A stretch of 34,668 nt of DNA. It comes from Clostridia bacterium. GTDB taxonomy: Bacteria; Aerophobota; Aerophobia; Aerophobales; AE-B3A. The position numbers were made by a program, and so were the translations under genes. The stretch covers positions 1 through 34,668 of the forward strand of contig DAOWIY010000020.1 in assembly GCA_030640665.1 (NCBI GenBank), read 5' to 3'. Below, in pieces: positions 3,703 to 24,669 of this stretch (within the stretch, counting starts at the first letter, position 1; every line of letters begins with the position of its first letter). The notes beneath the pieces were generated by a model. It was not told the origin of the DNA. It saw only the letters and a list, made by a program, of their open reading frames with translations, and ran no database searches.

Positions 3703-3895
3703 GGATGGCTGTTGAGTACCTTAGCGATATCCTAGAAAACTGCAAAAAGCTCAAGAACATTTTTAGAGAGAGTATAAAAAAATGCATCTCTTTTATTCCA
3801 GAAATTCTCTACAAGGAAAAAAAGCAAATAGAGGATAAGTTGAATAAGATACCAAAAAATACCAGAACAATCAGAAAAAAGATAGGTTTTGTAGC

Positions 3896-3923
3896 TTGAC
3901 ACTTCAGATTTTTATGCTATCTT
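3896..3923 (+). promoter_or_regulatory. Putative sigma70-type promoter TTGACA-N16-TATCTT
   Basis: TTGACA at 3896-3901, TATCTT at 3918-3923, 16-nt spacer. Confidence 0.45.
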
Positions 3924-3976
3924 TAAACTAGAATTGACAATTTAATATAGTTATCAGCTCACGCAGGCAGCAATCT

Positions 3977-4039
3977 GGGGGCTGACTCTCAAAGTATTAC
4001 GCTTTTATGTAGTGTTTTGGGGGTCAGCCCCCTTTTTTT
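3977..4039 (+). terminator. Rho-independent terminator-like hairpin
   Basis: GGGGGCTGAC (3977-3986) pairs with GTCAGCCCCC (4023-4032), followed by TTTTTTT. The stem can extend with G-U pairs. Confidence 0.7.
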
Positions 4040-4137
4040 ATGGGATTTTCCCATGGGGGACTGGAGAGTTAAAAGAAGAAAGAACAAGAAAGCTCAAGAA
4101 GTTTATTTTTTCAGCTTCGTACATCAAACGTTAACCG

Positions 4138-5505
4138 CTAGCCAAGAAATAATTTCCCCACCTTGTTTATATCCCCTGCGCCTAGAGTAAGTATTAAATC
4201 TCCTTCTTTTGATTCTCTTTTTAAAAAATTGATCATTTCCTTAAAGGTAGGAAAATAATATGTTTGTTTTCTTCGCTTTTCTTTAACTTTTTCAAATAAC
4301 AGTTTTCCGTCTATTCCAGGAAGGGGATTTTCTCCCGCAGCGTAGATGCTGGTTAAAAGAAGAATATCTGCTCTTTCAAAAGAGTGAGCGAATTTAGAAA
4401 GAAGCATTTTAGTTCGGCTGTAACGGTGAGGTTGGAAGATGGCAATTACTCGTCTTCCCAGTCTTGCTGCTGCTTTTAGGGTTACTTCAATCTCGGTAGG
4501 GTGATGAGCATAATCGTCCACTACTAAAATGCCGAATTTTTCTCCTATTACCTCAAACCTTCTTTTTATTCCCTTAAAAAGAGAAAGGGCTTCTTTAATT
4601 TCATTCCATTTTATTCCCAGAGTTATTCCTACGCCAATGCTGGCTAAGGAGTTATATATATTGTGTTTTCCAGGTAAAGAAAGATTTATATTTCCCATAC
4701 TTCTGCCTTTATAGTTAACCTCATAAGAAGAGCCAAATTGTTCCAGTTTTATATTCTCTGCTAAAAGGTGAGCAGGGGAGTTGATTCCATAGATGATTAA
4801 TTTTTGAGAAGCGGCTAAAGAACTTCCTTTTAGAACCTTATCCAGGCCAGGATTATCTTTATTAATAATCAAGGTTCCTCCAGGTTTTAACCTTCTAAGA
4901 AATTGAATAAATGCTCCGAAGAGCCTAGCCTCCGAGCCATAATAGTCCAGATGATCATCTTCTAAGCTTGTAAGAACCGAGATTTTGGGAGAGAGAAATA
5001 AAAAAGAGCCATCAGATTCATCACTTTCTGCCACTACATATTCGCTCTTGCCTAATTGGCTATTGCCGCCAATATCATTAAGTTCCCCCCCAATAAACAT
5101 AGTAGGATTTTTACCTCCTCGGTGAAGAAGCGAGCAGATGAGAGAAGTAGTAGTAGTTTTTCCATGAGTTCCAGCGACAACAATCCCTTCCTTTTCATTG
5201 ACCAGCTCACCCAAAAGGGCACCTCTTGAGATAAGAGGAATTTTTTTTCTTTTTGCTTCTTGAACTTCAGGATTGAGAGAAGGGATGGTGGAAGAGGTTA
5301 CTACTAAGTCGGCTCCTGCAAGATGAGAAGAGATGTGTCCCTGATAAATAGTTGCTCCTCTTTTCTCCAGGTGCTCTGTAAGGGTGTTCTTTTTTCTATC
5401 CGAGCCACTAATGAGGTATCCTTTCTCTAACAGCACTTTAGCTAACCCACTCATTCCAATTCCCCCGATGCCTATAAAATGGATGGATCGAACCCCTTTT
5501 AGCAT
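4138..5505 (-). CDS. murC: UDP-N-acetylmuramate--L-alanine ligase
   Basis: IHFIGIGGIGMSGLA, GTHGKTTTTSL, DDYAHHPTEI motifs. Confidence 0.97.
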   Translation of the reverse strand: MLKGVRSIHFIGIGGIGMSGLAKVLLEKGYLISGSDRKKNTLTEHLEKRGATIYQGHISSHLAGADLVVTSSTIPSLNPEVQEAKRKKIPLISRGALLGELVNEKEGIVVAGTHGKTTTTSLICSLLHRGGKNPTMFIGGELNDIGGNSQLGKSEYVVAESDESDGSFLFLSPKISVLTSLEDDHLDYYGSEARLFGAFIQFLRRLKPGGTLIINKDNPGLDKVLKGSSLAASQKLIIYGINSPAHLLAENIKLEQFGSSYEVNYKGRSMGNINLSLPGKHNIYNSLASIGVGITLGIKWNEIKEALSLFKGIKRRFEVIGEKFGILVVDDYAHHPTEIEVTLKAAARLGRRVIAIFQPHRYSRTKMLLSKFAHSFERADILLLTSIYAAGENPLPGIDGKLLFEKVKEKRRKQTYYFPTFKEMINFLKRESKEGDLILTLGAGDINKVGKLFLG

Positions 5506-9065: not shown

Positions 9066-9267
9066 AATTCGTTGCTCGTTGCTCGCCTCTCGTCGATTAA
9101 TCTTTTTGATTAAGTTTGTGAACATATGAGATTCGTGATCAATTTTTTCCAAATATACTCTTTTTTCTTTTCATTATTTATAACTCGTATTTTGTTATTC
9201 GTACCTTGTCAATCATTTATTTTTTTCTTCTTTTCGAGATACGAACGACGAGCAACGAGATACGAAT
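9066..9267. repeat. Inverted heptamer-array element (AATTCGTTGCTCG... / ...CGAGATACGAATT)
   Basis: Left arm CGTTGCT CGTTGCT CGCCTCT (9070-9090). Right arm AGATACG AACGACG AGCAACG AGATACG (9237-9264), reverse-oriented, with outer ends AATTCGT/ACGAATT. Confidence 0.8.
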
Positions 9268-9346
9268 TGGTCGGGGCGACCGGATTCGAACCGGTGACCT
9301 CTTGCGCCCCATGCAAGTGCGCTAAACCAGGCTGCGCTACGCCCCG
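9268..9346 (-). tRNA. tRNA-Pro (GGG), CCA encoded
   Basis: Reverse complement CGGGGCGTAGCGCAGCCTGGTTTAGCGCACTTGCATGGGGCGCAAGAGGTCACCGGTTCGAATCCGGTCGCCCCGACCA. Cloverleaf is readable, with anticodon loop ATGGGGC. Confidence 0.95.
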
Positions 9347-9460: not shown

Positions 9461-9799
9461 TTATTCTAATATCTGAAGTGTCTCTTGCAGTTCTTTTTTT
9501 ATAATAAGAGGGTCAAGCCAATCTTTTCTTTGTCTGTCTCTTAGTTCTTTTCGAGCCCCATTAATGGTGAATTTCTTTTCATATAATAGATTTTTTATCC
9601 AGAGAACCAATTCAACATCTTTTTTTTGGTAACGTCGATGTCCACCGCGACTTTTTTGAGGACGAAGCTCCTTGAATTGAGTTTCCCAAAAACGAAGGAT
9701 ATAAGGAGGAAGATGAGTAATCTTACTTACTTCTCCTATACAAAAATATTTATCTGGGATAATATCTCTCTGCTCCTTATTTTCACTATTTTGAAGCAT
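9461..9799 (-). CDS. MerR-family transcriptional regulator
   Basis: FCIGEVSKITHLPPYILRFWETQFKELRPQKSRGGHRRYQKKDVELV is a MerR HTH with the RGGHRRY motif. Confidence 0.85.
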   Translation of the reverse strand: MLQNSENKEQRDIIPDKYFCIGEVSKITHLPPYILRFWETQFKELRPQKSRGGHRRYQKKDVELVLWIKNLLYEKKFTINGARKELRDRQRKDWLDPLIIKKELQETLQILE

Positions 9800-9830: not shown

Positions 9831-10009
9831 GAGACCAGGCCTAACATTTCGTTGTTCGTTGCTTGTATCTCGTATCTCGTAAAAAGACTTTAAGGCAAAC
9901 AACAAAATACAGAAGGGCGCTGCAAGAAGTTCGACACTCAAAATTCAAAAAACTTGATTGACGAGATGCGAACAACGAGATACGAGTGACGATGTTTAGG
10001 CCTGGTCTC
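9831..10009. repeat. MITE-like element with TIR GAGACCAGGCCTAA and internal inverted heptamer arrays
   Basis: GAGACCAGGCCTAACAT at 9831-9847 versus ATGTTTAGGCCTGGTCTC ending at 10009. Internal CGTTGTT CGTTGCT TGTATCT CGTATCT (9850-9877) and AGATGCG AACAACG AGATACG AGTGACG (9964-9991). Confidence 0.8.
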
Positions 10010-10040: not shown

Positions 10041-10313
10041 TTAGGCTACCGCTTCTTTTAAATTCTTACCTGGTTCAAATTTAGGAACATCTTTAGCCGG
10101 AATCTGGATCTCCTTACCCGTTTGAGGATTTCTTCCTCGACGTGCTTTTCTCTTCCTCACTTTAAAACTTCCAAAGCCAACTAAGGTGATTTTCTCTCCT
10201 CTAGCCAGAGAGTCAGTGATGGTTGAGGTTATCGCATCTATTGCCTCTCTACATACCCTCTTTGTTAAACCCACCTGACCGGCTACTTCTCCTACCAACT
10301 CAGCTTTGTTCAT
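10041..10313 (-). CDS. HU family DNA-binding protein
   Basis: MNKAELVGEVAGQVGLTKR and GFGSFKVRKRKARRGRNPQTGKEIQIPA motifs. Confidence 0.95.
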   Translation of the reverse strand: MNKAELVGEVAGQVGLTKRVCREAIDAITSTITDSLARGEKITLVGFGSFKVRKRKARRGRNPQTGKEIQIPAKDVPKFEPGKNLKEAVA

Positions 10314-10330: not shown

Positions 10331-10458
10331 ATTTAGCGTAGAGCGCATAGCGTTTAGTGGATAGTATCGCTTCGCTCCATTTCCTCTCCCACAAAAAATA
10401 GGGTGAGGGTTATTTTTGTCTTTCCTAAACGCTATACGCTACCCGCTATTCGCTATAT
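10331..10458. repeat. Inverted heptamer-array element (GTTTAGC/GTATAGC type) enclosing a CCTCTCCC...GGGTGAGGG repeat
   Basis: Left arm ATTTAGC GTAGAGC GCATAGC GTTTAGT GGATAGT (10331-10365). Right arm CCTAAAC GCTATAC GCTACCC GCTATTC GCTATAT (10424-10458). The 10383-10409 palindromic repeat lies in the loop. Confidence 0.85.
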
Positions 10459-17670: not shown

Positions 17671-17850
17671 GAACTAGCGTTTAGCGTATAGTTTTTCCAG
17701 CTGTAAACAATAAGGGGTAAGCGGTAATCTTCTTTTTTCACGAAGTACGATGTACGAAGTACGATGTACGAATTTATGTGCTCGGGTCGGCTTCGAATCC
17801 CCTTTTCTCTCTTGCTATTCACTATTCACTAAATACTAACGACTATTTTT
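17671..17850. repeat. Composite of four heptamer arrays filling the ilvD/tRNA-Ala intergenic region
   Basis: GAACTAG CGTTTAG CGTATAG (17671-17691); GTAAACA ATAAGGG GTAAGCG GTAATCT (17703-17730); ACGAAGT ACGATGT ACGAAGT ACGATGT ACGAATT (17740-17774); GCTATTC ACTATTC ACTAAAT ACTAACG ACTATTT (17814-17848). Confidence 0.85.
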
Positions 17851-24599: not shown

Positions 24600-24627
24600 C
24601 GTCGCTCGCTACTCGTTGCTCGTATCT
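24600..24627 (+). repeat. Heptamer array CGTCGCT CGCTACT CGTTGCT CGTATCT
   Basis: Begins 4 nt after the CCA of tRNA-Leu. A stub copy (CGTTGCT CGTGAAG) lies at 24174-24187 after the trkA stop. Confidence 0.85.
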
Positions 24628-24669
24628 CGTGAAAAAATTTCCTCTAACTTGCCTCTTATAGCTTAAAGC

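What the first reader, a model, noticed from the sequence alone, without database searches (positions are those of the whole stretch)
9831..10009. 179-bp MITE-like hairpin with near-perfect TIRs and inverted heptamer arrays
GAGACCAGGCCTAACATTTCGT on the left matches the reverse complement of the right end, GAGACCAGGCCTAAACATCGT. Inside, both arms carry four heptamers in opposite orientation around a roughly 85-bp core (AAAAAGACTTTAAGGCAAAC...AACTTGATTG). It has the layout of a non-autonomous mobile element or a large cruciform between the HU-like and merR-like genes. No clear target-site duplication is visible.
Basis: partly seen in the sequence, partly recalled or inferred. Interest (0 to 1): 0.65.

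Follow-up and report, generated by a model that had tools for sequence, protein, structure and literature searches.

The report
Heptamer-capped insertion beside HU gene
Between two ordinary genes of an uncultured Aerophobetes-like bacterium sits a recent 179-base insertion whose two ends carry short runs of 7-letter words pointing outward; dozens of other insertions in this genus follow the same rule, which gives a first handle on the long-unexplained 7-base repeats of bacterial genomes.

Summary
In detail: 9831-10009 is a long imperfect palindrome with a unique 14-bp outer inverted repeat and two 32-bp heptamer arms around an 80-bp core. It is a lineage-specific insertion: the HU-merR gap of the same-genus genome and of 14 further order relatives lacks it. 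It is not a MITE family defined by those TIRs: GAGACCAGGCCTAA occurs nowhere else in 851 kb read. The heptamers do recur genome-wide. In 44 clean insertion/empty-site pairs between two species of the genus, insertion ends hold 7-bp-spaced RCKA anchors pointing outward 119 times and inward 2 times. The two ends of one insertion often carry different heptamer families, cognate arms pair no better than mismatched ones, there is no fixed target-site duplication, and cores are unrelated. So the hairpin is a by-product of two outward-facing "caps", not matched TIRs. The outer palindrome is best read as a host hairpin split by the insertion (one parallel case found). Inferred mechanism: the caps are the end sequences used when DNA is inserted in trans; no enzyme was identified. 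Intergenic heptamer arrays are known and unexplained; the outward end-capping rule appears new.

The parts
9831..9844 (.). left arm of the outer 14-bp palindrome GAGACCAGGCCTAA; inferred half of a host (HU 3') hairpin stem split by the insertion
   Evidence: unique; no other copy; relatives carry a hairpin at this place; parallel split hairpin in L067
9849..9880 (-). left heptamer cap; outward (minus strand) reading ACGAGAT ACGAGAT ACAAGCA ACGAACA ACGA
   Evidence: family genome-wide
9881..9960 (.). 80-bp core, otherwise single-copy; its left edge AAAAAGACTTT recurs next to arrays elsewhere (L062, L065, L100, L413, L436)
9961..9992 (+). right heptamer cap; outward (plus strand) reading ACGAGAT GCGAACA ACGAGAT ACGAGTG ACGA
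9996..10009 (.). right arm of the outer palindrome, TTAGGCCTGGTCTC
9461..9799 (-). MerR-type regulator gene downstream (112 aa)
   Evidence: synteny with HU in 15 relatives
10041..10313 (-). HU gene upstream (90 aa)
10331..10458 (.). a second capped insertion, between HU and the upstream plsY-type gene: left cap AGCGTAG/AGCGCAT/AGCGTTT, right cap CGCTATA/CGCTACC/CGCTATT; G001 has an empty site here
   Evidence: G001 gap -3, window gap 121

Best explanation
The feature is a recent, lineage-specific composite insertion downstream of the HU gene in an Aerophobetes-like bacterium. Inferred: the caps are the end sequences that the inserting machinery recognises or joins, so that whatever lies between two outward caps (REP hairpins, filler, perhaps small gene cassettes) can be inserted in trans without a fixed target duplication. 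Also inferred: the insertion went into the loop of an existing palindromic hairpin (GAGACCAGGCCTAA stem), which now appears as the outer inverted repeat.
For: Empty sites: 15 of 15 relatives with a readable HU-merR gap lack it, including same-genus G001 with 88 bp there instead of 245. Polarity: 44 clean insertions of 60-450 bp between G000 and G001 have 119 outward against 2 inward RCKA pairs in their terminal 65 bp; 13 capped at both ends, 16 at one. Independent check: 7-periodic partner arrays lie on the inner side 25 against outer 4 times in G001, 11 against 5 in G000. Independence of the two ends: same family 17 of 40 against 12.5 expected (p 0.06); cognate A/A arms -23.7 against -24.9 kcal/mol for mismatched arms (p 0.74). 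Pre-existing end sequences rather than random growth: identical ordered blocks recur (ACGAGATACGAGATACGAACAACGA 5 times in G000; GCTAAACGCTACCCGCTATACGCTA 3 in G000 and 5 in G001), almost all arrays have 3-5 anchors, the first triplet is mostly GAT and the commonest triplet after the last ACGA is ATT; core edges recur. Split hairpin: L067 holds a capped insertion in the loop of a hairpin that has a 28-29-nt loop in four intact copies.
Against: No recombinase or transposase was linked to the caps: no Y1 transposase in either draft of the genus, no repeated transposase gene seen in self-comparison. Mixed cap families at one insertion are unusual for a transposase. 15 of 44 clean insertions match no RCKA cap at either end (some carry GCTT- or AATTAACT-type heptamers that the test pattern does not cover). 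The split-hairpin reading rests on two cases, and both genomes are incomplete drafts.
Confidence: 0.6

Rival explanations
1. The caps are made at the moment of repair: a telomerase-like reverse transcriptase or a slipping polymerase adds heptamers to broken 3' ends, which are then joined around filler DNA. RCKA would be the 4-nt realignment anchor and NNN the copied part.
For: Outward polarity at both ends, independent ends, small target deletions instead of a duplication; the anchor+triplet layout parallels the A-B-A' repeat addition of DRT10 (PMC12632851); G001 encodes one reverse transcriptase.
Against: No reverse transcriptase in G000, G002 or G005, which have the arrays (drafts); no Ku in any of 17 genomes; ordered blocks and core edges recur between loci, and several triplets are mixed in one array, which a single short template does not give.
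Confidence: 0.17
2. A classical MITE: a non-autonomous transposon with 14-bp (or longer) TIRs, moved by a DDE transposase.
For: Long TIR-like ends, 179 bp, intergenic, absent from relatives.
Against: TIRs are single-copy; target-site differences scatter from -18 to +4 bp apart from three short tandem-duplication cases, with no fixed duplication; caps of different families at the two ends of many insertions; cores unrelated.
Confidence: 0.08
3. A REP/REPIN-type element moved by a RAYT (Y1 tyrosine transposase), with the heptamers as by-products of GTAG-tagged ends; the inward reading of one heptamer family (GTAGCGG) equals the start of the genome's GTAG-tagged REP.
For: The genus carries abundant GTAG-type palindromes GTAGCGGTGCGATTTATCGCACCGCTAC, often as cores of capped insertions; REPs insert without target duplication (general knowledge); Y1 transposases occur in G002.
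Against: The 179-bp element has no GTAG-tagged palindrome; its caps are ACGA/TCGT; no Y1 transposase in G000, G001 or G005, while several relatives that have one (G009, G011, G013, G014) have no ACGA arrays.
Confidence: 0.1
4. A functional RNA hairpin (terminator, attenuator or processing element for HU/merR) kept by selection.
For: z = -7 fold; relatives have a short hairpin at the same spot.
Against: Absent in relatives; no T-run after the stem on the gene strand; no Rfam family; across 11 loci cognate arms pair no better than mismatched arms.
Confidence: 0.05

Closest known systems
Intergenic heptamer tandem repeats of prokaryotes (general survey PMC6344855; TAACTGA repeats of Beggiatoaceae, PMC4679880)
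   Same: 7-bp unit, intergenic, sporadic across phyla, function unknown; PMC6344855 calls heptamers the most abundant intergenic tandem repeats and says there is no clear clue to their function.
   Different: Those are described as direct repeats of one heptamer, in BOGUAY mostly just upstream of start codons. Here 4 positions are kept and 3 vary (RCKA+NNN), arrays have 3-5 anchors, and they face outward at both ends of lineage-specific insertions.
REP / BIME / REPIN elements with RAYT transposases (PMC3733652, PMC3116915)
   Same: Short intergenic palindromic insertions, paired in opposite orientation; GTAG-tagged palindromes are common cores of capped insertions in this genus.
   Different: The 179-bp element has no GTAG- or CGTC-tagged palindrome of REP layout; its ends are heptamer arrays; no RAYT in the two drafts of the genus.
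MITEs (bacterial miniature inverted-repeat elements)
   Same: Size, inverted ends, no coding capacity, empty sites.
   Different: Ends not shared by other copies, no target-site duplication, ends assort independently.
DRT10 tandem-repeat cDNA synthesis (PMC12632851)
   Same: Bacterial route to short tandem repeats with an anchor-plus-template logic.
   Different: DRT10 makes free, protein-primed cDNA; nothing links it to chromosomal arrays, and G000 has no reverse transcriptase hit.

Membership tests
MITE | multiple copies sharing the same terminal inverted repeats | tested here: not met
   GAGACCAGGCCTAA only at this locus; no second full-length copy
MITE | target-site duplication of fixed length | tested here: not met
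   at this locus none visible against G001; across similar insertions the difference scatters
MITE | absence (empty site) in relatives | tested here: met
MITE | autonomous partner with the same ends | tested here: inconclusive
   no Y1 transposase and no repeated transposase gene found, but DDE families were not searched and the genome is 84.5% complete
REP/REPIN | GTAG- or CGTC-tagged palindrome of 20-40 bp | tested here: not met
   sequence of 9831-10009; definition from PMC3733652
REP/REPIN | RAYT gene in the genome | tested here: not met
   none in G000 or G001 (drafts)
Intergenic heptamer repeat arrays | period of 7, intergenic, many loci in the genome | tested here: met
   101 arrays of period 7 against 2-27 for other periods from 4 to 13; 79 of 101 outside ORFs of 100 aa or more, which cover 89% of the DNA
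Intrinsic terminator | GC-rich hairpin followed by a U-run on the transcribed strand | tested here: not met
   gene strand after the stem reads AAAAAATACATCG
Known RNA family (Rfam) | match above gathering score | tested here: not met
   only three tRNAs in the window

The most novel reading that the evidence does not exclude
Prokaryotic heptamer arrays are the end caps of a previously undescribed DNA-insertion system: any DNA segment flanked by outward (RCKA NNN)3-5 caps, whatever the family at each end, can be inserted into intergenic DNA (hairpin loops, next to tRNA genes), by an unknown enzyme that leaves no target duplication.
Probability: 0.3. Interest if true: 0.85.

Novelty: new variant of a known kind. 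Interest (0 to 1): 0.6.

Why it matters
Heptamers are reported as the commonest tandem repeats in bacterial intergenic DNA, with no known function (PMC6344855). Here two related species give 44 clean insertion/empty-site pairs, in which the arrays sit at insertion ends with a polarity of 119 to 2. This turns an unexplained repeat class into a testable question about how DNA is inserted. It also warns that a strong predicted hairpin with TIR-like ends need be neither a MITE nor a regulatory RNA.

Tried and rejected
Rfam scan: nothing beyond tRNAs. Search for a second copy of the TIR or core: none; only the core edge recurs. Y1 transposase, reverse transcriptase and Ku as candidate partners: none tracks with the arrays. 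Repeated transposase genes by self-comparison: none seen. Hairpin kept by selection: cognate arms no better than mismatched ones. Generality in two unrelated array-rich genomes (G198, G286): G198 leans the same way (partner array on the inner side 5 times, outer 1), G286 is uninformative. The viral collection scan gave many hits to the loose ACGANNN pattern without follow-up. The first part of the inverted-array-pair test with 2-anchor arrays was noisy; stricter arrays were used.

Full report
What is there. Positions 9831-10009 hold a 14-bp perfect outer inverted repeat (GAGACCAGGCCTAA), then two 32-bp heptamer arms (9849-9880 and 9961-9992) around an 80-bp core. No other 14-bp perfect inverted repeat of that span exists in the window and none in 20 shuffles. 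The minus strand folds at -64.1 kcal/mol, z = -7.0. Rfam finds only tRNAs. The flanking genes encode HU and a MerR-type regulator, both on the minus strand.

Host. The window is contig C28 of a 1.01-Mb draft in 116 contigs, 84.5% complete. Its SecD is 75-77% identical to that of two MAGs labelled Candidatus Aerophobetes.

It is an insertion. HU and merR are neighbours in 15 relatives with a readable gap, and none has the element. The same-genus genome G001 (about 87% nucleotide identity over the aligned stretches) has 88 bp there instead of 245. By inspection, most relatives carry a short hairpin just after HU (in G001 AGGAGGCAGAAGAAATTCTTTTCTTCCGCCTCCT). The upstream HU-plsY gap holds a second heptamer-armed insertion in the window and nothing in G001.

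What repeats is the heptamer, not the TIR. The 179 bp has no second copy; about 40 short matches in the genome all fall on the arms, and the outer palindrome is single-copy. Period 7 stands out genome-wide: 101 complex arrays in 851 kb against 2-27 for other periods from 4 to 13 (14 is its harmonic), 79 of them outside ORFs of 100 aa or more. The families (ACGAGAT, GCTATAC, GCTTACA, ACTATGA, ACTATTC) share the formula RCKW+NNN when read outward.

Insertion/empty pairs. Aligning 322 kb of G001 stretches to G000 gave 76 length differences of 40 bp or more; 44 distinct clean pairs have at most 20 bp on the short side and 60-450 bp on the long side. In the terminal 65 bp of these insertions, 7-bp-spaced RCKA pairs point outward 119 times and inward 2 times; 13 insertions are capped at both ends, 16 at one, 15 at none by this pattern. 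G001 stretches were partly chosen because they hold ACGA arrays, which raises the share of capped insertions but cannot create the polarity. The motif was read off the same data; the polarity holds within the ACGA family alone, and the inner-side test points the same way (25 to 4 in G001, 11 to 5 in G000).

The two ends are independent. Of 40 outward-facing array pairs, 17 have the same family at both ends against 12.5 expected by random assortment (p = 0.06). Within ACGA/ACGA pairs the cognate arms are no more complementary than mismatched ones (-23.7 against -24.9 kcal/mol; p = 0.74). So the hairpin is not selected as such, and the arms are not TIRs of one element. There is no fixed target-site duplication: the difference runs from -18 to +4 bp, apart from three cases of 7-11 bp that look like short direct duplications.

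Caps look copied rather than freshly grown. Identical 25-bp blocks recur, nearly all arrays have 3-5 anchors, the innermost triplet is mostly GAT and the commonest triplet after the last anchor is ATT.

The outer palindrome. In L067 a capped insertion lies inside a hairpin family GGACAGGCTACTT...AAGTAGCCTGTCC; four intact copies have loops of 28-29 nt, the L067 copy 146 nt. By analogy the GAGACCAGGCCTAA palindrome is best read as a host hairpin at the HU 3' end split by the insertion. This is inference from two cases.

Mechanism. Polarity, independent ends, unrelated cores and lack of a fixed duplication fit a process in which the caps are the ends used for insertion, acting in trans. No Y1 transposase is found in either draft of the genus, reverse transcriptase only in G001, Ku nowhere. 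DDE transposases were not searched. End synthesis during repair, in the style of the repeat addition of DRT10 (PMC12632851), remains a rival.

Distribution and literature. The pattern ACGANNN x4 occurs 36 times in G000, 92 in G001, 20 in G002, 16 in G005, once in G007, and in no other genome of the order searched; it is abundant in a few unrelated genomes. Surveys report heptamers as the commonest intergenic tandem repeats, of unknown function (PMC6344855; PMC4679880). No paper found in the library describes outward arrays at insertion ends; most subscription journals are not in that library.

Verdict. It is a new variant of a known, unexplained repeat class, with a polarity rule that can be tested.

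Noticed in passing
window 9067-9097, 9241-9268, 17736-17846, 24603-24632; G000 and G001 stretches: Heptamer arrays crowd around tRNA genes: 7 of 17 tRNAs in G000 and 17 of 26 in G001 have an array within 100 bp, against 5% and 12% of ORF edges, and 29 of 34 such arrays point toward the tRNA. Longer spacers beside tRNAs may explain part of it.
   Followed up: partly
L399 about 1119-1618, L403 about 2154-2930, L452 about 3762-4501 (G001): Toxin-antitoxin-type genes (HicA, a PIN-domain protein, ParE/RelE-like) lie in segments that differ between the two species and have heptamer arrays at one or both edges: caps may carry small gene cassettes.
   Followed up: partly
many loci, e.g. L439 6764-6972, L452 1492-1631 (G001): Abundant GTAG-tagged palindrome pairs GTAGCGGT..ATTTAT..ACCGCTAC in three variants whose stem bases change together (TCGG/CCGA, TGCG/CGCA, TTTG/CAAA), often as cores of capped insertions.
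   Followed up: partly
L067 398-600 (G000); intact copies L035, L038, L073, L444: Terminator-like hairpin family GGGGACAGGCTACTTTTT - 28-29 nt - AAAAAGTAGCCTGTCCCC; in L067 its loop is filled by a heptamer-armed insertion.
   Followed up: yes
L431 310-1920 (G001:C85): Stand-alone 536-aa reverse transcriptase (RVT_1) next to a gene that looks like a DNA methyltransferase; no reverse transcriptase hit in G000.
   Followed up: no
G286 and G198 (unrelated genomes): Hundreds of ACGA+NNN heptamers with other triplets (TGG, TTT, AAT in G286; TGC, TGA, AGA, CGC in G198): the ACGA anchor recurs in unrelated genomes while the triplets differ.
   Followed up: partly
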